Shown here: piece after piece, positions 16,871 to 58,655 of the stretch
How the letters are laid out: each line of letters starts with the position of its first letter
How positions within the stretch are numbered: the first letter of the stretch is position 1
From: Mesostigma viride
Lineage: Eukaryota; Streptophyta; Mesostigmatophyceae; Mesostigmatales; Mesostigmataceae
DNA length: 64,000 nt
Assembly (NCBI GenBank): GCA_009746045.1
Contig: RPFO01000579.1
Location: 682,160-746,159, forward strand
Reading direction: 5' to 3'
Position numbers and translations under genes: made by a program
The notes under the pieces: generated by a model
Told to the model about the DNA's origin: nothing
What the model saw: the letters and a program-made list of their open reading frames with translations, nothing else
The model's database searches: none

Positions 16871-19856
16871 ATGGCAGCGCTGCTCCAAGCCAGGTCGGTG
16901 TTATCATGTGCTCATTTGCAGTCCTCATTTCCACACGGCAATCGCAAGCTTGTCCGGGCTGTCGCTGCCATCAACCGGACTTCCAGTGCGTCCCCAAATG
17001 CCGCAACAAATTGCCGACTGGATAGCCCCCCCGACGTGGCGCGTGGTAAAGGGCAGCTTGATGTCGACACAGAACCTCGGCCAGACGCTAAGCAATCCGG
17101 CAGCGTGCTCAAACACGCTGCTCTGGGGTTATTCACAGTAGGCTGCAGCCTTCAGGCCGGCACAGCATTGGCCGATGCAGGGAATTCGCTAACTCATGGG
17201 TTGTCGCAGGTACGTCTCGTGATCTGAATTCACGACATCTGGGCCTGGCTAGGACGCAAGCAATGCAATGATGTCTGCAGTTAGTTCTGACATGTTACAA
17301 CTTAAAGACACGAGCTCGTGATCGTAATGCATGCTCCCATGTACACCGTTGGATCGTCTGTGCGCTGTGCGTTGCCAACTGCAGGCGCTGTCCTTAGGTT
17401 TCCCAGCGCTCAACCCCGAAAGTACGGACTTTGTACGGACGATTGTCTGGCTCGACTTCTGGCTTGCCGTGCTGTTCAACGTCATCGCTCCCCAATGGAT
17501 TTTTGTGGGTGCCCTCAAGGCTGATAATGGGACGTTGAAAAGGGCAAACATCGCCTATTGGCAGGTTAGTTGATCCGGGAAAAAGTTATCAGATAAAAAA
17601 ATGCCAACCAGCCTGCTCTAAAGTTTGCAGAATAGCCTGTTAATCTACTAGCCTACTTATGATCTCTCTGTTTACCCTTAATCTACTAGTCTAGTCCATT
17701 AATCTACTAGCCTACATAGTCTCTCTGTTTACCCTGGGTTCAGTCATGACGATGGCATTGGCCAAGTACTGGCAATCTCTGCACGTTGTGACTGTGGTTT
17801 CAAACTGTCTGTCTGAGGGACTACGTGTGACAGGGTGAGATACGCTGGCACATGAGTTACAACGAGGCGCCGTGTGCACTATAAGTAAGTAGGTTTCTTT
17901 AGCTTGCGTTGTCCAAAGGGATGCTGCTTTGTCTTGGGGTCATAACAACTGGCATGTGGAACGTACTCGAGCCTCAGTGTGTAGCAGGTGCTTATGCATA
18001 CCGCCATCTGGGCACCGCTGCGGAAGGCTCCTACCGCTGCACAAGCCAAGCCTTTGATACTCTGACTCTGTCAGTTTATTGGTGGGAGACGAATGGGGTG
18101 AGAAGCCGGCATAGTGAGTGGGCATTTGGTCGGTGGGAGAGTGGGCAAGTGACAGATCAGGTGCGTGGCTGTGTGCAAGTGGGCTAGCATGTATCGCGCA
18201 TGCAGCATGCTCTACGGGGTGATGGTTCTTTTTGCCCATGCTTATGGGGAGGCAGACCCCTGGACAGCGGCTTGCCTCTGGTCCTCTGACAAGTGCGTGC
18301 ACGCACCTCCACACGCTAGTGCACACCGGAGCATGACACACTGTGTCGAGGTTGGCATGCTGCTACATGGAAGTGAATTGATCGAATTTCAGTTCGTCGA
18401 TTCAATGGTAGTGGGCAGTTATCCTCTAGTTTTTCAACATGTCTTCTCTGTTGTGCCTCTGGTCACCTTGTTCTGCACGGGCATGCTCCCTCATTGAAAT
18501 CGACGTCTACTCCCCTGACTGGCTAACAAAAGGCGATTAGATTACTTCTATGCTTTCTTTTTTTACACCTCTGGCTTCCCATATGTAACCAGGGCGCTCC
18601 CTCTTGATGACCGATCCGTCTACTGCCCAAAAACCATTAACGAGATCTCAAGTATTTCTTCATGAAAGTTGCCCTCCTTGGGGTGTCCTGGCTCTTTGCC
18701 ATGACAGGCCTGCTCCCTGTTCATGGTCACCGTCTAGCTCCCAACAACCGATAACGGGATCACATCTATACATACTTTGCCCTCCTGGCGTTCTGGGTGT
18801 CTGGACCAGGCCTGCTCCCTGTTCATGGTCACCGTCTACCTCCAAATCGGTGGCTGGTCGCCCGGCTTCAACACCGAGCTGGCGAGCGTGCTGGTCACGC
18901 CGGTCGCGCTCTGGTGGTGGAAGGACCTGGGGGAAGAGATCGATGGCGCGGATGACCCCCTGACCGCCACCTGGCGCACCTGGCGCAACGTGGCCACGGT
19001 CGTGTGCCTGTGGATTGCCGCCTCACAGGTGGGCATGGTGGCCCGGGTTGGGTAGATAACGTCGCAGATTGTGGCGCGTGGCCATGGAGGTGTGCCTGTG
19101 GATCAATTGCCGCCTCGCAGGTGGGCCAGCATTCGTAATGCCCAGGTGTTAAGGCGATGTGACGCATGACCGCTCGCATGTCCCTGTGGATCGCACCTTC
19201 TCGAGTGGGCATCGTGGCCCGGGCTGGGGTAATAGTTACAGTGATGGGCTTGGGTAAATAACTGCCAGTCACGGGCTAGCGGGCGTCCACTATAGCTTGG
19301 CAAGGCAACCTCCGTTCAGGTGATTGGCATCTTTCGTGATTCTTTTTCTGTACAGCGTACATGTCTTGGTCGTTGCATCGGGTCTGTCCTATTCGTTTAT
19401 CTAGTACATCAGAAGGGTATACACCTTATTTGAAATATGGTAGCGTACTACCCACGCGTAGGATGGAATGTCACTTTGCCAAAAGCTTACAAACCCTCAA
19501 CCCTGCCCATGCCAACCCCACCACCACGGCCACCACCCTGCCAGGTGTTCACGGGCAATCAACAATGCGCGCTCGAGCCTTCATTCGCCGGCGGGATCGG
19601 CGGACCGATCCTTGCAAACCCGACGTGCGCCGCATGGCTCGAGCCCGAGTACTACTTCAACCAGCTGCTGCACCCCTGGCTGGACCCTGGCGCAGCACGG
19701 GCGGCCGCGCAGGTGGGCCTGGTGGTCTATGCGGGCCGCTGGCTGCAGCTCTTGGCATTTGAGCTGCCCGCGTGTGGGCGGTTCACGTACAAGAATGAGC
19801 GATCGTCGTCGGTGTGGCTCACGCGGGTGCTCGGGTTCCTGGGCAAGGACCAGTGA
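16871..19856 (+). CDS. Probable plastid-targeted multi-pass membrane protein, function unknown (4 exons, 349 aa)
   Basis: The exons are 16871-17209, 17385-17564, 18810-19028 and 19545-19856. They total 1050 nt, all three introns are phase 0, and every exon ends in CAG before the donor (GTACGT, GTTAGT, GTGGGC). The start gives MAALLQARSVLSCAHLQ, followed by a Ser/Ala/Arg-rich, acid-poor stretch that resembles a chloroplast transit peptide up to about residue 55. Hydrophobic segments follow at about 83-105 (HAALGLFTVGCSLQAG), 129-157 (IVWLDFWLAVLFNVIAPQWI), 174-210 (ends PVALWWW), 231-248 and 300-318. The C-terminus is VWLTRVLGFLGKDQ then TGA. I do not recognise the family. An exon could be missing in the 1245-bp second intron. 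Intron 2 carries copies of the start of exon 3, and intron 3 carries copies of its end. Confidence 0.6.
18590..18850 (+). repeat. Echo of the 3' splice site and start of exon 3 (membrane protein gene)
   Basis: The stretch 18628-18740 is a diverged direct copy of 18745-18850. Both contain caggcctgctccctgttcat and the 18 bases after it. In the echo a TAG replaces the TAC codon, so the upstream copy cannot serve as the exon. The unit is about 113 bp and includes intron sequence as well as the exon start. Confidence 0.85.
18988..19230 (+). repeat. Echoes of the end of exon 3 and its donor (membrane protein gene)
   Basis: The true border (tgcctgtggattgccgcc then TCACAG|GTGGGC) is repeated in diverged form at 19089-19127 and 19178-19230, each with gtggatc...cgc and gtgggc. 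The third copy also keeps the following intron bases (gtggcccgggctgggg). Confidence 0.85.
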
Positions 19857-21297
19857 AAGAATTGTGTACTTATAGAAACTGATAGCATGATGAAAGAGCA
19901 TTATGCAGCGTGTCTGGGCAAGGACCGATGAAGGGAACAAGACAAGGGAGGAGAGTCAGGCGTAGGGAAGAGAGAGCCCTCAATGTGAGGTTTCTGAGCA
20001 CTTAGTCTGGTGACAAAGTTGTAGAAAGTAACCAGGGAGGAGGGAGCAGCATGCATAGTGTAGGGGTTCATGGGCAAGGACCAGTGAAGCGGTGAAATGA
20101 AGAAGTGAGAGGGAGCGCGTGGTTTCACCGAGATGGATTAAAGAAGCACTATCTTGACGTCAAGGGGAATCCGTCCCTTTACTATGTGCAGTACGCTATG
20201 CAGGTATGAAGAATCAAAGAGCAGGGAGCCCACCACCCTGAACCAGCTAAACTTATAACCCCAAACAATGGAGACCTGAGGACTTATGCTCACGTGACGC
20301 AGTCACGTGTCTATTAATTAATTAATTAATTAATTAATTAATTAATTAATTAATTAATTAATTAATTAATTAATTAATTAATGGAGACCTGGGTTCTTTG
20401 GGTGAGAACCAATTGAAGTACTATATGAAGTACTATATGATCACTCTGCCCAGGCGCACTGGGCACGGTCAAAGTTATCGGTATCAACAAATTGGGTATG
20501 TTGGTGTTTGTCAATGAGCTGTACAATAATCAGTCCCCATGCATATCACGATTGCAAATGTTATATTACACGTTATGTAGTACAATATAGTTAATTTTTT
20601 CTAAATATGAATTAATCTCGTGCTCCCGTTGGGGAGTCAAGTTTTCTAAATACATGCGTCATGACCAGCACGCAGACGATTTATGATTAGTAAAAAAAAA
20701 GTACACGTGACATGCTGCGAGATGCCCGCACGTGTGCAATGACACATGATCCCAAAATGCATTATAACATGTGCATGTTTGCTTTTCTCACATATACTTC
20801 AGAATGTTTTACAGTTTTCTGGGGTTGTTTGCATGAAGGGTATTCGAAACCCAGACACCATGCACGGGAAGACCGCACATGCACCACGTGCACGTTTATC
20901 CGCATGCCCCTTGTGCATCCAGGTGGCTTTCACTGGCGCCCCCGCAGCCATCATACATGCATGCTTGCTAATTAGGCGCACTGCAAAAAATGGTGCATGG
21001 TCACGCTATGCGCAAAGTCAGAGCAGAATCTGTGGCCCAAGCACCCGTCGCATCCTGTGCATACGGTTTACTGATTCAGCTTAGATGGAGCCAGGTAACC
21101 CTCGATCTACACCAGCGATAGTGCATAGTGTATACCTTGGCATCCCGCACAATTTCCTAGCCTGCACCAATTTCCTTATTGGGATAGCCAGGGAATGCTC
21201 AGTTGTGACGGCAGCAGCTAGGCACTTTGCAGTCGTAGAAGGCATCAATAGCCTCATTACACTACCTGCGACACAATACGCGAGAGATCAGTCAAGA
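19857..21297. other. Intergenic stretch between convergent genes; only a LINE tail
   Basis: A diverged repeat of gggcaaggaccagtgaa from the preceding exon end recurs at about 19915-19930 and 20071-20087, so the terminal exon also has echoes downstream of its stop. A LINE-tail insertion lies at 20279-20379. I see no supported gene. Confidence 0.5.
20279..20379 (+). mobile_element. LINE tail-only insertion with 12-bp TSD
   Basis: The insert has only the last 30-odd bases of the LINE 3' UTR, including the hairpin CACGTGAC-GCA-GTCACGTG, followed by about 70 bp of TTAA repeats. The direct repeat AATGGAGACCTG flanks it exactly (20267-20278 and 20380-20391). This is an extreme 5' truncation and defines the true 3' end and tail of the family. 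Confidence 0.92.
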
Positions 21298-24200
21298 CTA
21301 CGCCTCATTGACCGAAAAAGCTGCGAGCTTGCCCACGACTGACGCATGCACACCATCCATCACCTCGGCAAGACCCCCGGGGGCATCAGCAACGTCACCG
21401 CGTGGGCGTGCCGGGGGCAAACTACAGCCAGCGTTGTTGCAGCCAGCACAACTGTCAGCTGGCGTCGATCCATGATCACGGGCCTCCACGTGCTCTCGCA
21501 CCGCCTCCAAGTCCACAAAGGGCTTGTTCATGCCCCCTGGCTCTCGAAGTGCAGTGTGGAGGAAGGGCATGAAGCGGCTCGTGGCGTTGCCGTCGCCGTA
21601 GAGCAGCGTGGGCTCGAACCGCTTACCTGCGTGCGGGGTGGCCGCGGAGATGGTGACAGCATGGGAAAATGGGAGAGGATGAGAGGGTCGTACACTGAGA
21701 AAAAGGAGAGCAGCGCGGGCTCGAAACGCTTGCCTGCGGGACGGAACCAACCAAAAAAACGAGAGGCGGAAAGAAGCCAGAGTTGCAACTAATAAGCATG
21801 AAGAAATTACATCACGGGACATGGCAATGGAGCGTCCTTCCTAAAATATAGAGCGGACGACGGTGGCGAGGATGAGGGATGGAGCAGTACCAGGCCGGCA
21901 GGATAAGATTAAGCACAACGAGGGGGAAACCGAGGCGCTTACCCGGCAGGGAAGAACAACCCGGCAGAATGCAGAACGGAAGGCAGCCACTCTCATGAGG
22001 GCAGGGTAAAAACAGGCATTCAATTAGTCAAGGCATGCAAATCGAAGACGAATTCAGCTAAGCGAGGCAGTCGATCAGACTGCGCAGCCGACGTTACCTA
22101 TATCGGCCTCCCCTTCAGCCGAAAGCTTCATAAAGCAGCCCCTCACCAGGGGATTACTCCAGGAGTGGATTACGTTACTTCTATCACGAAATTCCCTCTT
22201 CTGCGTTAACACCAAGAAAAAAAAAAACACCACAGCTCAGAGAATATAACTCCACGATAAACCTCCAGCGTGCCTATAGGGCGAGGAGGTCAAGTAAATG
22301 CACAGCTCGCCACAAAATTCTCCCTGAGCGCCGCCCCCCCCACAACGAATGCTCATGCAAGAACTCTACAACGACCTTCAGCCTAAACTGATAGTAGTAT
22401 ACGTTATGTTTATAGTCTACAGTCACAGGGCCTCGCGCTTCTCAGTTCTCACCAAAATTGTCTTTCAGCGCCGCCTCCAGATTTGCCTCCGTCACGTTCT
22501 CCAGCCTCATTAACGACGCCCGCGCGCCCGCCCGGTTGGCCTGCCTGCCCCCGATGCTAATCGAAGGCACCCCCAGCGCGCATGCCTCCCTGGTCCCTGC
22601 GCTACTGTTGCCCACCATGCACCCGCAGCTGCGCATGAGGACTGCAAACTCGGGAAACGGCATCGTGGTCACGGGGCGGATGAGCTGCTGCGGCGCCGCC
22701 ACCCGGCCATCCACTGCCAGGAGGCCGTTCCCTCGTCCCCCCATGACATCTCTCCTGTCCGCCACCATGTCGAGCACATTTTCCCCAGAATCGGGGCCCC
22801 GATCGCGGCTCTCTTGTGCCCTGTTGGAGTCTCCCTCGCCCGCCCCAGTAATGGGCACATCTTTCCAGTCCAACCCCGAGTGGTCATTCCCTTCCGCACC
22901 CTGGGCGCACACATCCTGATCATGTCCCCCCAGATTGCCATTCCCTTCTGCACGGAAGGGCGCAACTCTCCCGGCCTCCCCTGTGTGTACATCGCTCTCG
23001 TCTGCTCCCACATGGCCGTAGTTCCATACCGATGGACCCGGCACCATGCCCGGCATCAAGTAGCCACTGGCCACGTCCCCACTGGCCAAGTTCCCAATGG
23101 CCAGGTTTCCGCTGGGCCCGTTTGCGCGGGGCATGTCTTCAGCGGGCACATTTCCCCCGGGCACGTTGATCCCTGGGATAGCACCATGAGATGCCGGGGG
23201 TTCCATGTCTGCCGCGCCGTCGAGGCCCCCACTTTCTGAGCTGGAGCCTTTCTCCCGCCTGGGACCGGAATGCTGCGCAGATTCTGGGTGGTACCCGTGC
23301 CCACCCCCATGTGGGTTCCGTGGAGCGCAATCATGGGCCGAGCGCCGTGACGGCTGCAAGAAGCGATGAATCTCCGCGATCAGCGCCTTATTCCCAGGGT
23401 CCGTGTTGGGATAGAATAGGAGCGTGCGGAGGCCCATGCGCGTGGCGACGGTCAGGATTATGCGGAACTCCCGCACGGACGCCTCCATGTCGTTCGTGTC
23501 CGGGTGGTGCTGCACGAGGAGGAACTTGCGCGGCTCCACACTGTAGTGCTGCAGGACCTCGTCCTCTGATCGGCTCATCGGCAGGTGGACGTTGCCCAGC
23601 AGGACGTCGTAGGAAGGGCACCCCGCCAGGCACACGCGCGACGGGTGCTCGCCCAGCTGGAGCACGCGCCGGCGCGCCTCCTCGTTGCAGACCAGGTGGA
23701 AGTGGGCCAGCTTTGTGATCGCGTGGCGGAGGACACCGTCGGCGCTCCCGGATAGCTCACCGCCCTCCAGGTGGAGCACGCGGATGCCTGACAGGGAGGC
23801 AGCGGAGACGGCCGCGAACGCATCGTAACGGTCCCTGTTTGGGGGGGGGGGGGGGGGGGGGGGGGCGTGTTACATGAATAAAATGTTACTACTGTACATA
23901 TGCGGTACATACACTGCGCATATACTGTACATAAACTGTAGTATTTGGATGAGATCAAATGGATAAGATGTTAATGTGTTCATGTTAAAGAGATTTGTGA
24001 GACTTGTTGTGCTTTGGTCATGGTGGGTGGGAAGGAGGGGGGGGGGGGGGAGTGGCATGGAGGGAGAGTGTGGGCATAGGGGTGTTGTCTCCTTGATAGG
24101 GGTGTGCTCATATTTATTATCAATTAGTGGTATGTTCTCGTGATGATGGTAATACTCTCATGGGTGGGGGAATATGAGAAAACGAGGATTGACAGCGCTA

Positions 24201-25772: not shown

Positions 25773-26444
25773 ATTGCCGGTAAACTTACCGCCTATATAA
25801 GATGTTTTCGACGCGTACACTAGCTGGGAAGGCGGCACTTCAGGTAGCCGGGGCTTTAGCCATGCTCGTCCCAACGCACGCGGATAGTGCTTCTCACGTA
25901 AAATGGCGCCAACCACACTGCGACGAGCTGAGCTGCCTCATTTGTAGGCGACTGTCAATTGTACTGGCCACACGATGCCCGTCGGTCTTTCATATCCCTA
26001 CATGTAAAGACTGTCAATGGTTAATTACGTCAGCGGCGCGCTGTCTCTGCAACCTGCCATTGTCCGCACAGAAGTCACTGCTGACAAGTTACCCAGGGTC
26101 AAATCCAAAGTAATGACCATGATTATCCATCAATCTGTTACGTGTTAATTAATCCATCAAACCAGAGACGAACAGAACGCGCTGGATGCGAGGTATATTT
26201 AGCGACAGGCTGATCCTGAGACGCGCTGCGCAAGCATTCCATTCAGCACGAAATACAGGAAAGCGACACTTTCTATTGCTTTCGACTACCGTAATCTTGC
26301 CCCTAGTGTACCGACCTCCAGTGTAGATAAATCTGTTCTCAATCTCAAATCAAGTGGAGCAATATGGAATTGTTTGAGGACGCCCCGTCCTCACAACCTG
26401 TTGTTGTGTTGTTGTACTGTACTGTAGGAGGTGCCCCACTCAGT

Positions 26445-26687
26445 GTCGGGTACAGGCATTCACGCCTTAAGTTGGGTTCGAGGTTTTGAGGGGGGTCAAC
26501 CCAACTTAAGGCGTGAACCCAACTTAAGGCGTGAATGATTCTACTAAATTCTACTAGTTTGAACTAAAGATACTTTAAAACTTTATTCTGAACTACTTTG
26601 AACTTGGAATGCCGAAACCCTATTTGACCCAACTTAAGGCGTGAACACAACTTAAGCCAACCCAACTTAAGGCGTGAATGCCTGTAC
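26445..26687. mobile_element. MITE with 30-bp inverted repeats and 10-bp TSD
   Basis: The arms at 26449-26478 and 26659-26688 are inverted copies (left arm begins ggtacaggcattcacg). Extra copies of acttaaggcgtgaa lie inside. CCCACTCAGT is repeated at 26435-26444 and 26688-26697. There is no coding capacity. Confidence 0.8.
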
Positions 26688-28327: not shown

Positions 28328-28540
28328 ACACATTCTTTTCATGGATGGGCATCTGATTTCCCATATTAGAGTGGGCATAAGCAAGAGTTTGTTTAATACC
28401 TTAACTCCTCACTTCATTTTGCAAATGTGAGTCAACTTTTCAGAATTATAATAATGGAAATTCCATTAGCTTACCAATCAGCCAATGTTTTCTAATGCAC
28501 ACGCGTGGCCACCAATGACCAACGACGAAGCAAGCAACGG

Positions 28541-30206
28541 CTACAAGTCATCGAAGAGCGCCTCATTGCCACCGTCATCATCGTCGTCATACCGCTTCCC
28601 CATGACCCCAATGAACTGCGAATAATCCTGCCCACCACTAACATCTGCGCTGCCATCATCCCCATCGTCCTTCTTGACATCCCTGTCTCTCCGCCGCGCC
28701 CGCTTGTCCTTAATCCCGACACCCGTCTCGCTCTCGCGGCCCCTCTCCTCGCCACTGGCCCCTCCCTCGCCCTCCGTCCCCTCCAGGGAATCCGATGACG
28801 GGGGCCGCGCCACGCCCCTGCCAGCTGTCACGATCGTGTCCCTCGGCACGAGCTTGACGGCGATCCGGCGGCGGCGGTTGAGCGTGTCGGGGTCGGCGCC
28901 CTCAGGGAGGACCTCGACGCGGCAGGGGCTGCGCAGGCGAGGCACAAAGTATTCGCCGCCGGCCTCCAGCTGCATATACCGGCGGGGAAAGAAAAAACTA
29001 GGCAAATCGGCAGGTTAAGTAGGCCTGCTACTAAGGTTAAGGTCAAAGTAAAGTTAAGGTTCAGGTGCAGGTTCAGTTTACCTAGACCGGCTTCTAACCG
29101 CAAACTCAAGTGGTTCCTTTCTGAGATAATTTGTCATACACAAGAGATGAAGCACGGTTACTTCAAAAGTGATGAACATGTTGTCGGAAAGGATAAGGGT
29201 GCCGCCATACGAGTTCACAGAACAACGAATCCATTCGTCAAACCTTGGTACTGAATATTTTCTAGGCCATACAAACCCAAACCCATCCTCGGCACCAGTC
29301 ACATGAGCATGAGGTAGAGTAGCATACTGATGAGAAACAATCACAATCACATTATAACCATGACACTTACCACCATTTACTAACCGGCCGACGCATAGCC
29401 ATCTCATCCTCATTTTAAGTATAATATTCACATCCTCGGCGGAGACCCCTTCTCAGTACCACACCATTCGACACTGTTATTACAATACCATGCCATTCGA
29501 CACTGTTATTACAATACCATGCCATTCGACACTGTTATTGCAATGATTGTTGTCATACTTACATCTTACATCCTCGGCGGGGACGTAGCCGTCCAGCTCT
29601 CACCCCATCTCCATACCATACTGACTATGACGATAGCAAATTTAAAACTAATGCTAAATATACTTTCGCTAGTACTGCTAAATATACTTTCACTAGTACT
29701 GCTAAAGATACTTTCACTAGTACTGCTAAATATACTTTCACTAGTACTGCTAAATATACTTTCAATACCACCGCTAAAATCACTACTGCAAATAATACTC
29801 ACATCCTCGGCGGACACGTAGCCGTCCAGCTGGCACCCCATCTCGACAAACATGCCGCCCCGGGGCTTGCCCGCCTCGAGCTCGTCGCTCTCGCTTCCGT
29901 CATCCGCCACAAACTTCTTCACCTTGGCCGCATGCACCTGTCCCTCCTCCAGATCCTGCCCGACAACATGTGTGGAGACATGAGACAAGCAAAGGGGTAA
30001 CAAGGGGCTTGAACAAGTCACAGGTAGACAACAAGGGACGAGGGACGAAAGGCCCCTTGCCTCATCCTGTGGGGTTCCGACCGCGAGCCCCATTGAGTGA
30101 CTCAGTAGAGGCAGAATGATCAACAAAGAGGGTCAGGGGATACCTGGCCCGTGGCCAGATCCTGCGTGTCCTCACGCAGGCACAAAATAATAATAATAAT
30201 AATAAC

Positions 30207-30238
<32 letters not shown>

Positions 30239-44700: not shown

Positions 44701-47700
44701 CGACAATTTCTCCAGTGCCATCAACAACTGCGCGCCCTCTCTCTCCTCCACCAGCAAGGGGCGCGTGTTCTGGGACCTGCTCGCGGGCGGCAGTGCCATT
44801 GCTGGTGGTAGTGCCATCAGCCGCAGCGGGGGGGGAGATGTGGTGAGTTACGTGGTCAGTAGTCACGTGGTCAGGTGGTAATGCCGTTGCTGGTGGTAGC
44901 GCCATCAGCCGCTACCGGGGCACGGGCCACGGGGGGGGGGGGGGGGGGGGGGGGGGCGGGATGCGGTGAGGCAAAGCATGCTGTCCGTTTGTCCCGATTA
45001 CAACGTTCCTCATCGACCAGTGTTGAAAGCCGATTCAATAAGTAGAGCCTGATAGTCTATGCATTCTGTCATGATGTTCTGCCTTCCCGCCCCTTTGCCA
45101 ATGGGGGCACCTGCCTGGTACCCTGGGCCGGCTGGCGCCATGACGGCAGGTGGCGGCGGCGTTGAGCCAGGCGCAGGAGCAGTTCAGCTCTATCCAGGCG
45201 ATGGTGGGGGAGCTGCTGGCGGACCTGCGGCCGGACAACTATGCGTGGTTTGCGGGTGGGTGCCTCTCCGTTACAATCTCGGATTTATCTACACAAATGT
45301 GTCTAATGTGTTCTAGTAGTCCAGATAACTACGCGTGGTTCGTAGGTGGGTGCTGATTTAGGGCGTGCATGTAGTATTATAGAGGTAGGTAACAGTTGTG
45401 TAACGGCGGCTGGATAACCATGTGTGGTTCGCACGTGGGTGCTGCTTTATTGTGACCATGCATATCGAGTCGTAGTCAAATAGCAAATAGTAAATACTAC
45501 TATAGCTGTATGCATGAAGGTATTTACCGATAAGACAAATGCTACATACTTATTGTAGTATTTAGTTATAGTAGTGCATAGTAGTATATAGGTATAGTAG
45601 TACATAGTAGTAAACCATTATTGTAGGACATAGCAGTATACTACTATAGTTATAGTAGTATACTAGTATAGGTATAGTAGTTGTGGCCGGATGTCCACGC
45701 ATGGCTCGCAGGTGGGTGCTGCTCAGTTGTAATTGTGCATATATCCACACCAACATTTCTAATCTACGCTAATATTCCAGTACTCTACGCGTGGTTGGCG
45801 GGCGGGTGCTGCTGTGTAGTATTATCATTCCAGCATGTGTAGAAGTCGCAGTGGCCATGGCAGGTGGAAAGAGTCTAATCTTGGACTGGATGCAGGTGTG
45901 GATTTGAAAAGGAAATGACCAGCTTGGATGGAAAACTCTGTTCAACCAGTGCTGGTACGTCGGTGCCATACCAGCAAAGGCCTTAGTCTTGCTGGTTCTT
46001 TTCGACAGCTGAGCCTGCAGTCCGTAGCAACTCAAATTGTTTGCCCTGTTCGCGTCTCGATAGGCTGAGGCTGCAGTCCATAGCAACACCACTTGTCCGC
46101 CCTGTTTGCGATTCGATAGGCTGCAGTCCTCCATAGCAACACTCCCATTATTACGTTTACAGTTTGTGATGTTCTTCGTTCATGGTGTTGTTCGCAGACA
46201 CCGCGCCACTCTGGCACCTTGTTTCGATGATCGCGACGTTTATCCCTATGACAGACTTCTCGACATGCCTCATACCTACCCCTATAATCCCCCCCCCCCC
46301 ATTTCGATCTGCTTCAGACCTAGCCTGCCCCCCCCCCCCGTATCTCATATCTCCAACCACCACCAAAAACGCATCAACACGAAAACCGCATCACCACAAA
46401 TTATGCATCACCACCAAAAACTTCACCCTGGCAGACGTGTTCGTGAAGCGCATCCGCCAGGTCAGCCGCATGGGCGAATCAGACGAACAACTGCTCAAGG
46501 ACTTGGGCGCTGCTGCCACCTGCACGCCGTCCAAGCTGCTCTCCCTGCACAACCGCCTGATGGGTGGTGACCAGCTGTCGTCCTCCACTGCCGCCTTCCC
46601 CTCCTCCGCCGCCCCCTTCTCCTCCTCTTCTTCCTCGGGCTCTACTGCCACACCATCATCATCCTTGACTCGTGGGCCCAGGGGATCTATCCCCTCCTCC
46701 TCTAACCCCTCTTCCAACTCCTATAACCTGTCCTCTTCTTCCTTCCCTGCCCTCGGGGGGCCCTCGCCATCGGGGGCTGCGCGTGGGCCTGTCTCCAACG
46801 AGGGCCAGGTCTTGAAACAAAGCAAAGGGGGTGGGGCCGGGGGCAGGGGTGGGGCTGGGGGCGGGGCCGGGGGCAGCATAAGCTCTGCCTCCGAGTCCTG
46901 GGGGAGAAGAATTAATCCTGGGATGACGGCAGCTAGTGTGGTGGAGTTGCAGCGAGAGAACCAAGGGTCATTTCAGCCCCAGCTGGTCTCGCAATCAGGA
47001 CGGTCCTCCTCCACAGGTTCCGTCCGGCCTGCTGGCGCCGGTCACGCAAACACCCCGATGTCTGGTCACTCTAGCGCCCTCATACCCTCCACGGGCGGCG
47101 CGGCGAGCAGGAGGGTCAACCCCGCGCAAGCCTGGGGGGGGTCCGGGGGCGGGGGGGGAGGCGTTGGGGGAGGCAGTAAGGGTGCAAGTAGCACCGGGGG
47201 AGGGGCAGGGGCTGGGGGGCCCGGTGGGGGGGCCGATATTGGAAGTGGCGGAGCGGGAGGCATGGGCAAATCGGGTCCCAGTGGTTCTGCCCAAATGGTC
47301 AAGATGGTTAGTGGAAGTCAAAGGAACATTGGAGGCAGCGGAGGTGGTGGTGGTGGTGGCGGTGGTGGCGGTGGTGGCGGCGGTGGTGGTGGCGGTGGGG
47401 CGAGCCTGCGTGTGACGGCAGTAGCTCGGGTGGTGCGCCGGTTCCCTCCGTCGCTGCGGGTGTACGCGCTATTTTTGGAGGCGGCGGACAGCCACGTTCT
47501 CAACAGTCACATCAAGGAGGCGGTGGCACGGCATATGCAGGAGATGGTGGCGTACGTTTACGATTTCCCTTTTTCTTTCCCCCTTACTATATCGGAGTTT
47601 TGCTTAGTTAATACTTCTAAGTTAGCTTAGTTAAGCTTGCTTAGTTAATACTACTACGAAGTGACCACAGGCACGTGCAGAAGATGGTGGAGAACATTGG

Positions 47701-50700
47701 TATGTTCACATTAGATGAAGCTTTGGTTCTAGTTCTAGTTGGTTATTTGTCGGGCCTTTTAATCTGTGACCACATGCACATGCAGGAGGCGGTCGAGTAA
47801 GCTGATAGTGTTTGTTTCTTCTTTCTTTAAGTGGTTGGTGCTTTCCTTGCTCAACATGTACATGCAGGAGGTAGTGGAGTATGTTGCTAGCCTCCCTTTG
47901 GTCAAGTTTAAGGTTGGTGCATTGCCTGGTTAATTCTCGTGATTACAGGCACATATAGCTCATGGTCGGGTATATTGATTGGTTAAGGAGGCAGTCAACC
48001 CTACTTCCATCATCATCGTAGTCTGTTTATCCATGTTTTTGGTGTTTAATTACATCCGCGATATGGTATTTGCAGCTGGGGTCAGTGGACTTCGCCTTTA
48101 CAGGCGGAGTACAAAAGAGATGGTGCATCAGGCACTTCCTCCTCCTCCACCTCTTGGTGGCACTAAGTGCTAATGGATTCTACCGAAGATGCCCCTTTCA
48201 ACCGCCCATCATACTTTCGCGCACGTTTCCTCAACTACTCATTAGCCTTTCGAATATGTCTCTTGCGCCATACGTTCTCCTTCCTCCTTCCGCCTTCCTG
48301 CAGGGTGGCCAGTGGCTCCTCTGCCAGCCCTGCGCTGGCGTCGGCGTTCACCGAGTGTGTGCTCGGCCTCAAGGCGCTCGCGTGCCTGCTGGGGTGGGTG
48401 CAAGCATTTTCATTCTTACTGTGTACTCCTATACTACACTAGTGTGTATGATAGGATGATGCATGCCATCAATGCTCGGTGCCGAGGTGCTCGCGTGCCT
48501 GCTGGGGTGGGTGTCGAATAGCAATTAATGAATTAGTCAACTTAATCTTGTCGAAGCATGTATGCTCATGATGCTGGGCTAATGGCGCTTGCGTGGGTGC
48601 CGATGCTTCAGATTAATGATATTCAAGATTTTAACGTGCCCAGCATCGTTAAAATTTTTGACCATCTACCAGACAAACGAGTTTGGGTATGCCGATGGAC
48701 GAGTTTGGGTATGCCGAGTGGTTCTGCATTGTCGCTCTTGTCCGGCTCAACCTTTCATGAGGCACGAAACAACGCCACTTGTCGGTTTGCGTCGCGACGT
48801 CACGTCATCAAACCACCGCGATGAGACAAATTTGAATATCAGCTCGCTCCGCCATTCTCGCCAGTGCATGTACAACTTTGAGACGTTTTCTCTTCCACGG
48901 GTCTAGAATACACGCTCGCCATCTTCAGTGTGGTCACATAGCCATCGGCGCCGCGTCAACCTCCCACCCAGCACCTCCTGGCCTCTCCCTCGTGCCCTTT
49001 CCCTCTACTGCCATTAATCTGCTTGTGCTGGCCACCCTTGCCCTTCCCCTTCCCCATCACAAATCTGCTTGTGTCGACCGCTCTTTCGTCGTTGCCGTGA
49101 GCGTTTTCTGGTTTATCCCTTTTCCCCCCTTGAGCATTACCTCTCTCTCATGAGCTTACCTCTAATTTCTTGCATTACCTTTCTATGAGCTTACCTCTCA
49201 TTTACCTCTCATGAACCTCTCATTTACCTCTCCTTCATGGGCTTACCCCGTTACCCCCTGCCACACACCTGGGCATGGGCCTTCGCAGGTACCTGGCCTA
49301 CGGGGACACCGAAGCCGCCACCAGCGAGGCGCTGCCACCCAGCTTATGGCGTTCCAGCGGTCACCCGCCCACCCACCGCGCCACATCAGCATCTGCATGG
49401 CAGGCACCCCGCGCCCCCCCCGTGGATCTGGCGCTAGTTCTCAAGGAGGCGCTGCGTGAGGGGACCCTGACGCTGAACGTGCCCTGGGCGCTGGAGCTGC
49501 TGCGCTGGCAGGTGGTCAGTTGAAAGATTTGTTGCGAACCTGTGTGTGCCAGGTGGTGGGCGTGACCTCGGTAGCTCTCCGTCATTTGGGCTGTTCAGCG
49601 CGAGTATATTGTCGAGGCAAGCAGGATATATAGCAGAGCAAGTATATTCTACTATGCTACTGGCAGCCGGTGCTTTGGCTACAATGTGGACAGCTTGCTT
49701 ACCGACGATGCTTTCATATGGACACGCTCGCGCTATGATCTGGAGATAGCGTACCAACGCTGCCGCCGGTGGGGTTCAACCTGCTGTAGGCGCTGCAGAC
49801 CATGGATGGGTGTCCCGCTGCATGGGCTTATTTCATGTGTCCTGTTGGATGCTTTCCTGTCTTATGCGCCCTGTTTGATGTCACTGCGTCAGCCTTGTTG
49901 GGAATCGCACTCCTAGTGCTGCTTGCCTGTTGTATCTTTGTTTATACTAGTATATTTATTTGTTTTGTTTGTTTATAAGTAGATACGTGCGCATGCCGGG
50001 GTGGCTGTACCGATAAAACATTGTGCAAACATTCGCTGCCCCAGCCAGGAGAAGAGATTGCCTTTGCTACATCAATTTCTGTTCAGTTCAGTCAACACTG
50101 CTGTATTTATCCCTTACCCGCTGTGTGGCTAGTTCAACATCGTATAAAACGTCGCAGTGGCCCACACCTTGCGTGGCCCCTCATGCAGGCAAGGGAAGGG
50201 GCCCTGGTTTCTCGATCAGATGATTTACAGGTGTCTGTCTCATCACATACCCTTAGTATCCGGAATACAGACATCAGGAATAGCAAGTGATGTATAACAA
50301 GTGATTAACAGGCGTCTGTCTCATCACATACCCTTAGTATCCTGAGTACAGAAACCAGGGGCTCCTCGCCATGCCCCCTTTGGCCTGCAGCCAAGAGAAG
50401 GAGTCCTGGTCTCCTCACCAGAAAGCGCTGGCCCATTTGTCGCCGCGGTGGCGGATCAAGTGCCCGCCCTGATGGAGCTGATGCGCATCTACCGCCATCC
50501 GAGGCTGCGGCCAACGCACTCCTACTTCAACGTAAGTTCGGACCTTTTGGTAAGTGCAGGCTTCACCCCTAAGCCATTATAAGTTCAAACCTTTTTCAAC
50601 TGTAGGTGGTAAGCTGCGGCCCAGCGCACCCCTATGTCAGTGTAAGCCCACAGTTGTTGTCATGGTAGGTCGCGTCAGAGATGGGGCGAAAGCAGCATTA

Positions 50701-51528
50701 GTAAATACGTATATTTAGTCTTGAAGTAAATACATATATTTAGTCTTGAAGTAAATACATATATTAAGTCTTGAAGTAAATACATATATTAAGTCTTGAA
50801 GAAAATACATATATTTAGTCTTGAAGTAAATACATATATTTAGTCTTGAAGTAAATACATATATTTAGTCTTGAAGTAAATACATATATTTAGTCTTGAA
50901 GTAAATACATATATTTAGTCTTGGAGTAGATACATATATTTAGTCTTGAAGTAAATACATATATTTAGTCTTGGAGTAGATACATACATTTAGTCTTGAA
51001 GTAAATACATACATTTAGTCTTGAAGTAAATACATTATTTCGTCTTGGAGTAAATACATATATTTAGTTTTGGAGTAAATACATATATTTAGTCTTACTC
51101 ACTTAGTCTTGAAGAGATCCTGCTTACGTTGGATCCGGATCCGAATGTACCATATCCTGCCCATCTTGTCTGTGTTTTTAATTCATTTATTGACACGCAA
51201 ACTGCGTCACGTGAGCATTCACCCTCATGTCTATGAGAGACCCCAGGCTGTGAAACCTTTTTTTTTCCGTAGCGGTCACAAACAGCACTGGACAGCCTTC
51301 TAAACAGCGCGTGATAGCATTCCAGGGCCGCCCAGTGGGGGCTTGTGCGAGTCATCAAGGAAAGGCTGTGGAGCAGGCAGTGCTGTGCGGCAGGGGGTTG
51401 TGAAGGCAGAATGTTCTGCTGGCATACATTTGCACCGTGTTCTGCTGGCAGACCTTTGCAGCATGGGGAAACCCTCTTCATGCTTGAAGCATTATTCACA
51501 AGTATGTCCGTCATCGTCGTCATCGTCG

Positions 51529-51609
<81 letters not shown>

Positions 51610-51610
51610 G

Positions 51611-51656
<46 letters not shown>

Positions 51657-51681
51657 GTCATCATCATCATCATCATCATCG

Positions 51682-51760
<79 letters not shown>

Positions 51761-54630
51761 TAATAATAATAATGTGATACACTGCCATCACATAATAGAA
51801 GTTATCATCACATAATAGAAGTTATCATCACATAATGATAACGGTACACTGTCATCAAGCTTCGAGGCATGCGCCCAGTTCCTTTCGCAGGTGCGGCATT
51901 AGGAGTCATCCTTAGATGAGAACGATTACCCTTTTTACCTTTTCAAGCCTTCGGTGTGCTGCTATAAGATAGAGGTGTGTCAAAAGCGTTGGCCTACTTA
52001 GCCTACATTAGGTTCCTAACTTAAAATTAAAAATCGTTTGCTGGCCCTTTGCTTGTGCAGGCGAACGCGCTGTGCGTCACGGCGGCACTGGAGGGCTTCT
52101 TCCGGGAGGTGGGTTTGGACGCCGAGATATTCCGGATATTGGAGAGAGAAGACATGTCCAATGTCGAGGTGCTTCCTGGTAGCTCCCCTGGCGCATCGTG
52201 GTCTGAAGAGAGCAGCCGAGGCCCTCTAAAGAGGAGCCAGCTCTCCACCCAGGGCAAATTGGGCAGCCAGCACTCTCCAATTGCAGGGTCTCCCTCTTTG
52301 GAGCATCCGTCGGTGGTTGCCAGGACGGATTTGGCCGGAGGGTCTGCGAATGATTTGAGGAGGGGAAGCTCTGGCCGGAACGTGGTAGACGAGGAGCGCG
52401 AGGAACCCCATGCTGGAAGGGATGGCGAATTAGTCGATGATGAAGATGATGACGAGGAGGACGAGGAGGAGGTTGATGGGGATGGAAGTCGGTCAAACTT
52501 GCGGCACAGTAACAGCGGGCGCCTGATCAGCACAAAGGGCAAGAACGGCTCCCACGGCAGCGTCCGGTCCAGGGATGGCAGCATAAGGTCCTGGGACAAC
52601 CGGGCAGGCGACGGGGGCGGCGACAGTGACAGCAGCGACGACGATGGGGGCGGCGAGGACGGAAACATGCTGGACAACAACGAGGAGGAAGAGTGTGGCG
52701 GTGGTGAAGGGGTGGCTGAGAGCGTGAAAGGGCCAGCTGGCGGCTTTTATTCGCGGCTGCGGGGTGACAAGGAAGCCGCCGCTGGCGATGGGGATGGTGG
52801 CGTGCTGCCACCGCTTGGGCTGGACTTTGCAGAGGGCATCGTCGACCGGAGGTTTCGGCAGAATGTGTGCCCGTTGCTGGAGGTAATTTTTTTTTGTTTT
52901 TTTTTTTAATAGGAGAAGATTGTGCCAGTAGCGTGTGCCCCCTGCGGGAGGTAACTTGTTCTACTATATATTACCTAGTATATTACCTAGTCTATTACCT
53001 AGTCTATTACCTAGTAAATTACCTTGTATATTACCTAGGTACCAGTGGGTTCGGGTTATAGCACGGGGTCCTGATCCCACATAATAGGCATTTCGCTTCG
53101 TGGTAGTGGTTACATGGTACGCCTTATAAAGATAATGCTGCCTGCTTTTGCATGGGCGCTACCCTCTCCATAGTAGGGCGCCACCCTCTCCTGAGTTAGG
53201 GCGCTGCCCTCTCTTGAACAGGGCGTGACCCTGTCCTGGACTCAGTGCACTAGAACGGTCCTAGCCCCATTGCATGGGGCACGATCAAGGGATGCGCGTT
53301 TCTGGCAGGGATGGGCGGTGCAGCAGGAAAATTTGTGGGCTTGCTTGATCTTTTGAGATAGCCGAGGCCAACGTGGCTACCCTCTGATCTTATTCAACTG
53401 AGTCGGGCTTGGCTGATCCGATCAGATAGCCGAGGCCAACGTGGCTACCCTCTGATCTTATTCATTGAGTCGGGCTTGGCTGATCCGATCAGATAGCCGA
53501 GGCTAATGTGGCTACGTGTAAATTTTGTTCAGCCAAGTGGGGCTTGCTTGATCTGTGCACTTGTCCATGTCATTGTCGGTGCTGTTGTCACTGATGATGC
53601 TGTTGTTCTTCTTGCTGCTGTCATCAAGCGAAGTACTAAAACCGGTTGCTGCTTGTAGTCCTTGGCTTTCATCCATGACACTGCTGCTACTGTTTCATCA
53701 CCGCCATTTCTGTTTCCGTCATCACCATTGCGGCTCTTGTTTTATCATGGCCATTTCTGGGTCATGTCATGGCCAGTGTCGTTGCTGTTGTCATCAATGC
53801 CGCTCTCTATTCCATCTCCCGCATTCCTTGCTTCTCTTTGTTCTACCATAGCCATCCCTGTGTCATGTAGTGACCTTCCTCTCCCCCCCCCCTTCCATCT
53901 ATTCCCCTGGGTGCCGGTGGGCAGGGTCTTCGCACGACCCTCGCGAGAGCCAACCGCCACCCCACCGCGGGGCCGTCGCCCGCCGTGACCCCCTTTGCGA
54001 CTCCCCCAGTGGTTGCGCCGATATCCAACACCCCCGCGGTCATGCCACGGGCGCTTGGGCAGAAGCATCCGGGGGCCCACCCGCCGCCCCGCAAGATCGT
54101 CCCGGTGGCGCCACTGAGCGCGGAGAAGAGCACGGCAGGAGCAAGTGCGGCGGCAGCAGGAGACTCAATCAGCGACAACCGTCTGGTCGCGTCGGGGACT
54201 GGTTCCCAGTTATTGGTATTGGGCAGCAACAACCCATCCGGAAGCAGTGTGTCGGGGTCATCCACCGTGGCTTCGACATGGCCACCGCTGCTTCATCCAC
54301 CACCCTCGTCTGTGGGCCAAGAGTCAGTACAGTCAGCCCAGGTGGCCGGGCTGCCGGCTCCCTCCGCGGCCTCACTGCCTGCCCATCCATCGGCTGGGGG
54401 GGGGCGCTTGATATCAACGATGATAGGTGGTGGTTCCCAGGGTGTTTCCTTGATGCAGGGGAGCCCTGCTGGTAGCTCCCAGGGTGGGGTACCGAAGAGG
54501 GTCGGCACTGCCAAGGATGCCACATCAGCATCCTCCGCCTCAGCAGCACCAACAATAGCAGGAGCAGCAACAACTGCAGCAACAGCAACAGGAACAGCAA
54601 CAGCAACAGCTACAGCTACAGCTACAGCAA

Positions 54631-54662
<32 letters not shown>

Positions 54663-57600
54663 ACAGCAGCAGCAGCAGCAACAGCAACAGCAGCAGCAAC
54701 AGCAACAGCAACAGCAGGAGCAGGAGCAGGAGCAGCAACAGCCGCATCGTCATCGCCGTCGTCAATTGCGGCTCGGTCGTCATCGCAAGTCGGCACACCT
54801 CGCGCCGGTTGGGCGTCGTCACCTGAAGACATCGCAGCGATCAAGTTGCGGCTGCAGGTAATGGCAGTAGGCGACGTATTTTATTGGGAGTATGCTGGTT
54901 GCGGCTGTGTGTGACAGAAGTAGGAAAAGTATCTCGTGACCACATCAAATATTTTTCAATCAAGTTGCGGCTGCAGGTAACCACTCGATTGTTACCTATG
55001 TTTTGTTGTCCTGGCAACTCGAATAAGCAGTAGCTTGCCTCTTTTTTGAATAGCATGCGCTGGCCGCGGCTGCAGGAACCACTCCCCTTACCTCCAACTG
55101 AGACCATCCCCAGCCTTAAACCCAAACCCAAACCCAAACCCAAACCCAAACCCAAACCCAAACCCGAACCCAAACCCAAACCCAAACCCAAACCCAAACC
55201 CAAACCCAAACCCAAACCCAAACCCAAACCCAAACCCAAACCCAAACCCAAACCCAAACCCAAATCCAAAACCAAAAATAAAACCAAAACCAAAACCAAA
55301 AGCAAAACCAAAACCAAAACCAAATCCAAATCCAAACCCGCACTTAAACCCAAACCCAAACCCAAACCCAAACCCAAATCCAAACACAAACACAAACACA
55401 AACACAAACACAAACACAAACACAAACACAAGCCCCCATCCCAATCCCCACCTCGTCATTTGCATTTATGGACTAAGAGCCATTTCACTACTTTGAGTAG
55501 CTCTGGGCAAAGCATCTCTGGACACAGTTTGCCTCTGCACGCATTTCCGGGAATCTCATCAGCCCAATTCGAGTCATTATTCTCAGTGTTGCTACTACTG
55601 CTGATTCTCGTGAGTCTCTGAGCAACAGTCTTCCCCCCCCCCCCCCCCCCCCCCTTATTACAGCGCGTGTTTGTGGACCAGCAGCTGCAGCTCTCTGGCA
55701 TTGAACTACGATACCTGAAATGCATGCATGTCTCTCTTCCGTACCCCCCTTTAGTACATCCATCCGAGTGCGCGTTCATGGACCAGCAACCACAGCTTAT
55801 AACCAAGTATTTGATTACCTAAAACGAAAATATGTGCCCTCTGTGCGCATGCCTGTCTCCCCCCTCCCTCCCCACACCCCACACCCCTCCTCTTTATTGC
55901 ATCCATCCCAGCGCGCGTTCATGGACCAGCAGCCCCAGCTGCGCCCCGTGTACGACTTCGTCGTCAACACACTGCTGGCGAACGCGGTGGCGGCCGCAAG
56001 GGAGGCCGTGCTGCCCTCCATCGCCCTGCCAGCTGGCAGCATAGCATTGTTTGACACAGCTGGCAGCCTGGTACCCTCATTCACCACGGCATCAACTGTC
56101 ACTACCATGCCATCGCATGCCATGGCGTCTGCTGGCAGCACGATGCCCTTTGCCCCAATGCTTTCAGCTGCCACCGCGGTGACCGCTGCCTCGGCGATGC
56201 CGGCGGCAACCGCCGTGCTGCCCTCCACGGTCATGACGGCAGCTGGCACGACCGTGCCGTTTGCCAGAGTTGCACCGATGGCGCCGGCGCCGGCGCCGGC
56301 TGCCACAGCACTGCTGGCCACTCCGACAATGGCACCATCCGCCTCGGCCTCGCCTGCTGCCATGGAGGTGCCGGCGGGCAGCCTCATGGCCACGAGCAAC
56401 GCTGCTGCTGCCAATATCAGCAACGCTGCTGCACACATTGTCAGCGACACTGTCATGAGCGATGCCATCGCAAATCCCGATCGACTTCCGCCGGACCGCT
56501 GCACCCCCAGCGCCAACCCCTTGGAAGCACCCGACAGCAGAGTCTCCCCCCAAGACAGGCTGGTGTCCCCCGGCCCGCTTGACGCAGAACACCGCACGCC
56601 AATGGATGGCGATGGGGCTAGGATGGGAATCACAAGTCTGAAGGAGGCAGCAGGTGTGAGTGGGGCTGGGAGTGCTAATGCTGGCAAGCGCGCAGGCACC
56701 GCTGTTTCAAATCCTGCCATGGGATCCGGTGGCTCAGCACCCAACGCGGCCCTCGACTCTCCAAGTCGTGGCACAGTCCATAGTACCTTCAATTCTGGTG
56801 GGAGTTCCCATGCTATTCACTTGGGCGCAGGCCTCGTTAGTTCTATTCCTGCCCTACATCCTGGCACGGACCCTAGCAATTTTACATCTAATGGGGGTCA
56901 TATTGACCCTTATTCTGGCGCACCGGGAGGCTTTGTGTTCAGCCACCTGCCCGTCCTCGGCTGCCCCGGGGACCTGCTGGCGTCGGCGGTGGCGTCGCAA
57001 GCCCAAGTGTTCACGCTGAGGGACGCTGCGGCTCGTGCGCGTGCGGACGAAGGTCCGTCTTTCCCTCTTTCGTTTCCCGTTCTTGATGTCGCCGTGGGTA
57101 TGTGTGTGCTTTCTTGATTTCTTCGTGTGTGTGAATGATAATGTGCGTATGCGAAGGAAGGTCCCAACGTTCTTCTTTTCCTTCCAAGGACTTGGTGTGC
57201 GTCTCTATCTGAGCCTGTGTGTGTATGTGTGTGCATGTTCATGCATGCTGAGGATGGGGGTGGAGAAGGGGAAGGGGATGAGTGGTGTACAAAATTACAA
57301 TAATTTATACAGAAAGTTCCTGTTTCATCGTGTCTTTTTTTTTTTTTTCTTTTCTTTTGCCTAAGCTTTTTCCTTTTTGTAGAGCTTGTGTATCCTTTTG
57401 AGTGTTTCTGGTTGTTTTGAAGGGGGAGGGTGAAGGGAGGGATTTTTCCCAAAAAGTGGGTCTAAACCTTGCGTTAAGCAAGATTACAAAAGGGTGAAAG
57501 TAATAACACACCAGGGGGAGGGGAAGGGGCCAGGGGAGCTCAGTCTATTATACTAATCAACTTGGCACTGCGCCATATTTTGCTGTACATATTTGGTAAA

Positions 57601-58655: not shown

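What the first reader, a model, noticed from the sequence alone, without database searches (positions are those of the whole stretch)
18590..58103. Exon-border echoes: introns filled with tandem copies of their own splice-site regions
In four of the five split genes, introns contain two to six diverged direct copies of the adjoining exon border. Copies of exon ends keep the 5' splice site, and copies of exon starts keep the 3' splice site. Clear cases are Codanin-1 exon ends 3, 4, 5, 6, 7, 8, 9, 11, 12, 13 and 15, exon starts 4, 6, 11 and 14, S1-gene exons 2, 3 and 4, epimerase exon 3 and membrane-protein exon 3. Units often include intron bases, so each is a local tandem duplication spanning the border. 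Tandem duplication of AGGT-bearing exon sequence is a known route to intron gain. Here it seems repeated and ongoing, and may explain how introns grew. Whether the process is genome-wide is inference.
Basis: seen in the sequence. Interest (0 to 1): 0.88.

Follow-up and report, generated by a model that had tools for sequence, protein, structure and literature searches.

The report
Introns grown by tandem self-copying
In several genes of this alga the introns are in good part built from worn tandem copies of their own neighbourhood, and the copying runs over the exon edges, mostly at the 5' splice site, leaving exon-end echoes that look like passive debris rather than a splicing device.

Summary
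In 22 introns of four window genes, the 50-nt exon edge matches its own intron better than all 21 others at 20 of 44 borders (one rests on a simple-repeat array). A kinesin gene on another contig has the same echoes. Copies are direct only and lie only in the adjoining intron; 148 of 191 direct copies of intron windows lie within 300 bp. This marks local tandem duplication.

Centring on splice sites is not supported: duplicates are as common inside introns (99 of 349 windows) as at exon edges (19 of 58). Donor edges (14 of 29) exceed acceptor edges (5 of 29), as expected if duplications across acceptors are harder to splice around. Echo 5' splice sites are kept about as neutral decay predicts, and there is no intron-gain signature. 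The process is uneven: ordinary genes in random loci show 4 of 69 intron windows and 0 of 7 donors. Best explanation: intron growth by neutral local tandem duplication, tolerated when the outermost splice sites stay in use.

The parts
40874..41525 (+). Intron 3 of the long 16-exon gene: donor echoes with borders near 40935, 40968 and 41112; acceptor echo about 41268-41309
41643..43479 (+). Intron 4: donor echo with border near 41934; also holds a 63-bp tandem array at 42068-43278
43578..44671 (+). Intron 5: train of donor echoes (borders near 43780, 43840, 43900, 43958, 44001, 44138), some within 60-bp and 45-bp tandem arrays; acceptor echo with border near 44508
44843..45149 (+). Intron 6: copy of exon bases -57..-18 at about 44874-44912 and a weak donor echo near 44965
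45256..46434 (+). Intron 7: four donor echoes (borders near 45345, 45434, 45711, 45801); one copy keeps homology to the source for about 80 nt across the border
   Evidence: no dispersed relatives except at one AT-rich repeat
47552..48303 (+). Intron 8: three donor echoes (borders near 47691, 47796, 47878)
48394..49288 (+). Intron 9: donor echo with border near 48506 (35/40), a second weaker one near 48604
49512..50390 (+). Intron 10: acceptor echo with border near 50189
50532..52060 (+). Intron 11: donor echo with border near 50641; also a 25-bp tandem array 50700-51096
54858..55911 (+). Intron 13: donor echo identical over 22/22 bases (-18..+4) with border at 54976 and no homology beyond either end; acceptor echoes near 55664 and 55769
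   Evidence: 54858-55085 matched only itself in the genome
31257..33936 (-). S1 gene intron 2 (acceptor at 31256/31257): copies of the first 25-47 exon bases with borders near 31362, 31780, 31883, 32250 and 32451
28970..29802 (-). S1 gene intron 4: donor echoes with borders near 29570 (42/47) and 29432
21627..22452 (-). Epimerase intron 2: donor echo near 22313 (GT lost) and acceptor echo near 21733
19029..19544 (+). DUF3177 gene intron: donor echoes with borders near 19120 (42/46) and 19204
19857..20090 (+). Copies of the DUF3177 stop-codon end in the 3' flank, at +58..+75 (16/18) and +208..+231 (23/24): an echo at a border that is not a splice site in this model

Best explanation
Non-coding DNA in and around these genes gains short local tandem duplications, most copies lying within about 300 bp of their source, which then decay neutrally. 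Repeated inside introns, this makes introns grow. When a duplicated stretch spans an exon border, the intron receives a copy of the exon edge plus the splice site. The change is tolerated if splicing keeps using the outermost sites: the first donor and the last acceptor. The copy then stays as an echo. Exon edges only show what happens throughout the intron, and they show it longer because the exon original is conserved. Donor echoes outnumber acceptor echoes, probably because a duplication across an acceptor puts a new AG upstream of the true one, which the spliceosome tends to take. Shown: direct-only, same-side, distance-decaying copies spread over whole introns, and near-neutral retention of echo donors. 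Inferred: the molecular source (slippage or repair-linked tandem duplication), the growth of introns over time, and the splicing reason for the donor bias.
For: Direct, not inverted: exon-edge copies scoring >=30 at 18 of 58 borders direct and 0 of 58 inverted (one inverted at >=26). Same side only: 0 of 44 in the intron on the other side of the exon at >=28 (one at >=26). Foreign introns: 2 of 174 at >=30. Intron windows: 102 of 339 direct versus 4 inverted. Distance of direct copies: 83, 47, 18, 11.5 and 4.4 per 100 bp at 0-100, 100-200, 200-300, 300-500 and 500-750 bp, and 1.0 or less beyond; 19 inverted copies show no steady decline. Reach into exons: 19 of 58 edges in the first 50 nt, 0 of 54 in the next 50 nt. 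GT/GC kept in 17 of 21 donor echoes (0.81) against 0.76 expected by simulated neutral decay; +1..+6 score 1.46 against 1.96 +/- 0.54 simulated. Use of an echo donor with GT would shift frame or meet a stop in 15 of 16. Kinesin introns on other contigs: 25 of 75 windows, echoes at two donors of L049. Intron 7 and part of intron 13 show no dispersed family other than one AT-rich repeat (that search skips simple repeats and very common words).
Against: Donor tails alone (14 of 29) exceed interior windows (99 of 349, P = 0.03), although an edge whose original is conserved is easier to recognise. In one search, 19 of 27 border-crossing donor alignments stop at +3..+11 and only 8 reach +26 or more; plain tandem copies should run on. 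Double decay of intron bases explains old copies but not intron 13, where 22/22 identical bases have no homology on either side. Donor echoes also extend less far right (mean identity 0.32-0.33 at +9..+33) than interior duplicates (0.49). The neutral test is sensitive to its assumption: if the splice-site bases are taken to decay 10 points faster than the exon part, GT retention exceeds expectation (P = 0.04). Exon-interior windows also show local copies when coding targets are allowed (31 of 209 direct, 9 inverted), against 3% of 191 when only non-coding flanks are searched. The density is very uneven between genes, and nothing here explains why.
Confidence: 0.78

Rival explanations
1. A splice-site-linked process copies exon tail plus 5' splice site (about -45 to +8) and inserts it downstream, for instance through breaks or nicks tied to transcription or to the 5' splice site, with a staggered-end duplication flanking new filler.
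For: 19 of 27 border-crossing donor alignments end at +3..+11. Intron 13 echo is 22/22 identical (-18..+4) with unrelated flanks, and the surrounding 228 bases matched only themselves in the genome. Donor bias 14 of 29 versus 5 of 29, P = 0.02; donor edges above intron interior, P = 0.03.
Against: Pooled edges equal the intron interior, and the intron bases next to borders are not richer. The splice-site end of old alignments is expected because +1..+6 of the true site is conserved. Eight alignments run to +26 or beyond. A border that is not a splice site in this model (DUF3177 stop) is also echoed.
Confidence: 0.13
2. Echo donors are functional decoy, recursive or alternative 5' splice sites kept by selection.
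For: The 16 echo donors with a GT score almost as high as true ones (median 4.88 versus 5.29; 290 random intronic GT -0.88). With the strictest decay assumption GT retention exceeds expectation (P = 0.04).
Against: With the divergence of the exon part itself, retention of GT and of the hexamer score equals simulated neutral decay (P = 0.39 and 0.82). Use of them breaks the reading frame or meets a stop in 15 of 16. Four of 21 echoes lack GT/GC at the projected border.
Confidence: 0.04
3. Introns were created by tandem duplication of AGGT-bearing exon sequence (intron gain), and the echoes are relics of that birth.
For: The model is established in print (PMC3443670, PMC4974935, passages read).
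Against: In that model the intron's 3' end copies the upstream exon tail and its 5' end copies the downstream exon head. In 29 introns the best scores there are 18 and 21, at background level. Echoes carry bases from both sides of an already existing border.
Confidence: 0.02
4. Mobile introner-like elements or transposons deliver the copies.
For: A dispersed element (38 scored places at 75-90% identity, of 159 candidates) sits inside the echo-bearing kinesin intron 2.
Against: Copies are local, direct and derived from the adjoining exon. Intron 7 and a segment of intron 13 have no dispersed relatives except at one AT-rich repeat. The kinesin element only lies between two echoes.
Confidence: 0.03

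Closest known systems
Internal gene duplication (Gao and Lynch 2009; recalled, and cited in the passages of PMC4974935)
   Same: Short tandem duplications inside genes, which can cover exon-intron borders.
   Different: Here up to six successive copies of one donor region per intron, donor-biased, and making the intron longer rather than adding an intron or exon.
[quoted passage not shown] a potato RdRp duplication across an intron-exon border (PMC4974935 passages; review PMC3443670 passages)
   Same: Same class of mutation, and in the potato case it spans a border.
   Different: No new intron is seen here; the gain signature is absent in 29 introns.
Intron-rich tandem repeats of Chlamydomonas and Volvox, densest in introns and more frequent near intron-exon junctions (PMC3887541, abstract and passages)
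   Same: Introns as the main site of tandem repeats in green algae.
   Different: The passages seen speak of tandem-repeat motifs, not of copies of exon edges; here degenerate long-unit copies include exon edges and are not denser in the intron bases next to borders.
Introner elements (Amoebophrya, PMC7789003 passages; wider survey PMC9860276, search listing only)
   Same: Repeats connected with introns and direct repeats at borders.
   Different: No dispersed family or mobile unit in the two segments searched.

Membership tests
Local tandem duplication / internal gene duplication | Copies in direct orientation | tested here: met
   18 of 58 direct versus 0 of 58 inverted at >=30
Local tandem duplication / internal gene duplication | Copies adjacent, falling off with distance | tested here: met
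   wrong-side introns 0 of 44 at >=28
Local tandem duplication / internal gene duplication | The whole period between source and copy is duplicated | tested here: inconclusive
   8 of 27 border-crossing donor alignments run to +26 or more; 19 stop at +3..+11
Intron gain by AGGT tandem genomic duplication | Intron 3' end copies upstream exon tail, intron 5' end copies downstream exon head | tested here: not met
   best scores 18 and 21 in 29 introns
Introner / transposon | Dispersed family of similar sequences | tested here: not met
   intron 7 and a segment of intron 13 only; the search skips simple repeats and very common words
Polymerase-theta-type templated insertion (recalled) | Inverted as well as direct local copies | tested here: not met
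   0 of 58 inverted edge copies at >=30; 4 of 339 intron windows
Functional decoy or recursive splice sites | Splice sites of echoes conserved beyond neutral decay | tested here: not met
   at the divergence of the exon part; P = 0.04 for GT only under the strictest of three assumptions
Functional decoy or recursive splice sites | Use in RNA | not testable with these tools
   no RNA data

The most novel reading that the evidence does not exclude
A duplication process tied to the 5' splice site itself, perhaps linked to transcription or splicing, repeatedly copies the last 15-45 exon bases plus the first 4-10 intron bases into the intron, so that introns grow from their donor end.
Probability: 0.12. 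Interest if true: 0.82.

Novelty: new variant of a known kind. Interest (0 to 1): 0.46.

Why it matters
Exon edges act as conserved rulers inside otherwise fast-decaying introns, so the echoes record how introns lengthen. Each echo is also a natural experiment in splice-site choice: a near full-strength donor next to the true one that must not be used. The donor-over-acceptor bias gives a testable statement on which border duplications splicing can survive. It also warns gene finders: 14 echo donors with a GT, at near full strength in the median, lie in the 22.7 kb of the window's introns studied.

Tried and rejected
ORF ends of 20 LHC loci as non-splice controls: 0 of 20 echoes; one of them (L026) probably ends inside an intron, so 19 are stop codons by my reading. 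An earlier run picked the antisense frame in most loci and was discarded. LHC acceptors: 1 of 13 at >=28; four of 17 attempted were dropped for lack of a clear AG, three loci were not attempted, and L009-L013 are close paralogues. Since LHC genes show few echoes of any kind, they cannot separate splice from non-splice borders. Window stops: 1 of 3, starts 0 of 3.

Random 10-kb loci (20; L031 and L041, mostly repeat, were skipped for gene finding): a home-made gene finder recovered 16 of 16 exons of the long gene, but was trained on it. In random loci its predicted donors gave 1 of 51 at >=30 and 2 of 51 at >=28, acceptors 0 and 1 of 51 (53 introns, some probes dropped as masked). Many predicted genes there read like mobile elements. 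Seven introns belong to recognisable cellular genes by my reading (L029, L030, L040, L043), with 0 of 7 donors and 0 of 7 acceptors; a doubtful HDAC intron (L045) and the predicted introns of L047 were left out of that seven. Nucleotide-level repeat search of random loci mostly found what look like mobile elements and protein repeats.

The name Codanin-1 could not be confirmed: no Pfam match for the pieces tried (proteins 4 and 5, proteins 3-6) and no solved relative for a joined set of pieces. A second haplotype of the window was sought to see echo polymorphism: none for intron 7; the kinesin locus has a nearly identical second copy, two bases shorter.

Literature: nine searches, seven on the topic (one search returned nothing) and two on the organism. 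I saw no description of multi-copy exon-border echoes in those listings, but the library lacks most subscription papers.
Full report
WHAT WAS CHECKED. The window lies in a 440-Mb, 2243-contig genome of a photosynthetic green-lineage organism (light-harvesting genes). I rebuilt the split genes from the sequence. The long + strand gene has 16 exons at 35748-58655, reads open from end to end, and all 15 introns are GT-AG or GC-AG. The S1 gene (-), the epimerase gene (-) and the membrane gene (+) give seven more introns. Pfam supports three of them: S1 (4e-13), Epimerase_2 (2.4e-57), DUF3177 (2.6e-24). The name Codanin-1 for the long gene found no support. All borders rest on reading frame, splice consensus and domain continuity, not on RNA.

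THE ECHOES ARE REAL. The 50-nt exon edge was aligned to its own intron, to the other 21 introns and to shuffled introns. The own intron won over all 21 others at 20 of 44 borders and over all 60 shuffles at 19 of 44; chance predicts two of 44 for the first (P about 1e-15). One of the 20 (start of exon 3) rests on a simple-repeat array; with arrays masked, 18 of 58 window and kinesin edges still score 30 or more. With a probe that includes six intron bases, 18 of 29 donors carry at least one echo, 34 echoes in all, one to six per intron (unmasked; several in intron 5 lie in 60-bp and 45-bp arrays). Seven of the 34 differ from the source by 0-11% over the aligned part, the rest by 12-28%, which makes assembly doubling unlikely.

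THEY ARE NOT CONFINED TO THE WINDOW, BUT NOT EVERYWHERE. A kinesin gene on another contig (exons found by PF00225; frame open and kinesin-like across the borders) has echoes at two of its four donors. Two further partial kinesin genes give one borderline case in three introns. By contrast LHC loci show 0 of 20 at ORF ends and 1 of 13 at acceptors. The fifth window gene shows none in its two trusted introns, though two matches occur in doubtful parts of the predicted model. Seven introns of ordinary genes found in random loci show none. In intron-wide terms the share of 50-nt windows with a direct local copy is 99 of 349 in window introns (8 inverted), 25 of 75 in kinesin introns (7 inverted, all in the intron that holds a dispersed element), and 4 of 69 in introns of ordinary random-locus genes (0 inverted). 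Random 10-kb loci overall give 222 of 2901 direct and 97 inverted. Window non-genic windows give 48 of 478 direct and 12 inverted.

WHAT KIND OF COPYING. Copies are direct: 18 of 58 edges at score 30 or more, against 0 of 58 inverted. They lie only in the adjoining intron: 0 of 44 in the intron on the far side of the exon, at score 28 or more. Direct copies of intron windows crowd close by (83 per 100 bp within 100 bp, falling to 4.4 at 500-750 bp and 1.0 or less beyond), while the 19 inverted ones show no steady decline. This is the pattern of local tandem duplication. It argues against templated end-joining repair that also yields inverted copies (recalled) and against mobile elements; intron 7 and a 228-base segment of intron 13 matched only themselves in the genome apart from one AT-rich repeat (that search skips simple repeats and very common words).

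ARE THE COPIES CENTRED ON SPLICE SITES? By offset (score 28 or more), the exon tail -50..-1 has copies in 14 of 29, the next 50 exon bases in 0 of 27, and intron windows between +1 and +400 in 19-42%. At the acceptor the exon head has 5 of 29, the next 50 bases 0 of 27, and +151..+200 1 of 17. Pooled edges (19 of 58) equal the intron interior (99 of 349, P = 0.53); donor edges alone are above it (P = 0.03) and acceptor edges not (P = 0.28). Intron bases +1..+100 are, if anything, poorer (10 of 52) than +151..+400 (44 of 124, P = 0.05), and -100..-1 (9 of 54) poorer than -400..-151 (36 of 116, P = 0.06) (the windows between were left out). So the process fills introns and laps up to about 50 bases over exon edges; it is not focused on the border. 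Edges are also favoured in detection, because only one of the two copies decays. Exon-interior windows give 31 of 209 direct and 9 inverted when coding targets are allowed, and 3% of 191 when only non-coding flanks are searched. A border that is not a splice site in this model, the DUF3177 stop codon, is echoed twice in its 3' flank, though an unrecognised intron there cannot be excluded.

DONOR BIAS. Donor edges exceed acceptor edges, 14 versus 5 of 29 (P = 0.02). A duplication across a donor leaves the true donor first; one across an acceptor places a new AG before the true one. From general knowledge of 3' splice-site choice the second should be harmful more often. This is inference.

DO THE ECHOES DO ANYTHING? 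The 16 echo donors that keep a GT score nearly as well as true donors (median 4.88 versus 5.29, random intronic GT -0.88). But when each of 21 echoes is compared with neutral decay at the divergence of its own exon part, the retained GT/GC (0.81 versus 0.76 simulated, P = 0.39) and hexamer score (1.46 versus 1.96 +/- 0.54) show no extra conservation. If the splice-site bases are assumed to decay 10 points faster than that, GT retention is higher than expected (P = 0.04), so a weak effect is not excluded. Using the echo donors would shift the frame or meet a stop in 15 of 16. I see no positive evidence of a function. The intron-gain model is not seen: its two signatures reach only background scores, 18 and 21, in 29 introns.

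WHAT DOES NOT FIT. Of 27 donor alignments that cross the border, 19 end at +3..+11 and 8 go on to +26 or more; two purely intronic alignments were left out of this count. For old copies this is expected, because the true 5' splice site is conserved while the following intron decays on both sides. For the young intron 13 echo (22/22 identical, no homology on either side) it is not. Either another event replaced the neighbouring bases, or some copying really ends at the splice site. Interior duplicates also extend further (right-hand identity 0.49 for 59 duplicates) than donor echoes (0.32-0.33, baseline 0.25), though by my reasoning interior pairs are younger at equal identity. I keep a splice-linked process at about 0.12.

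HOW MUCH OF THE INTRONS. The 22 introns total 22,737 nt. About 23% was masked (arrays, simple repeats) or left over at window ends, and a further 22% lies in windows with a direct local copy, so up to about 45% of the intron sequence is recognisably local repetition.

RELATION TO KNOWN WORK. Tandem duplication of exon sequence as a route to introns is reviewed in PMC3443670 and exemplified across a border in PMC4974935 (passages read). Green algae (Chlamydomonas and Volvox) have their densest tandem repeats in introns, more near junctions (PMC3887541, abstract and passages). Seven searches of the held library on the topic listed nothing that I recognised as multi-copy exon-border echoes; the library is partial and most listed papers were seen as listings only.

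VERDICT. Real, strong and informative, but best read as neutral intron growth by local tandem duplication that laps over exon edges, unevenly distributed among genes, rather than a splice-site-centred or intron-creating process.

Noticed in passing
window 60150-62177 (-): Open frame of 675 codons with a reverse transcriptase domain (PF00078, 5e-25); probably a non-LTR-like retroelement (my reading) next to the long gene.
   Followed up: partly
window 42068-43278: A 63-bp (and higher-order) tandem array of about 1.2 kb fills most of intron 4 of the long gene.
   Followed up: no
window 8733-10656: GAGGGAAG array of about 240 copies giving long open frames on both strands.
   Followed up: no
window 19857-20090: Two copies of the DUF3177 stop-codon end in its 3' flank (23/24 and 16/18).
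   Followed up: partly
L049 (C622) and C2:6330536-6334134: The kinesin locus exists twice in the assembly, essentially identical over 3.6 kb, so C622 is probably an unmerged haplotype or recent copy.
   Followed up: yes
L049:2077-2501: Dispersed element of about 420 bp, 38 scored places at 75-90% identity (of 159 candidates), lying between two echoes in a kinesin intron.
   Followed up: partly
L038 (C446:1000001-1010000): Frames resembling a ribonucleotide reductase next to a highly repetitive protein; identity is my reading only.
   Followed up: no
L009-L028: Antisense frames of LHC genes are often as open as or longer than the sense frame, a trap for ORF-based annotation in this genome.
   Followed up: yes
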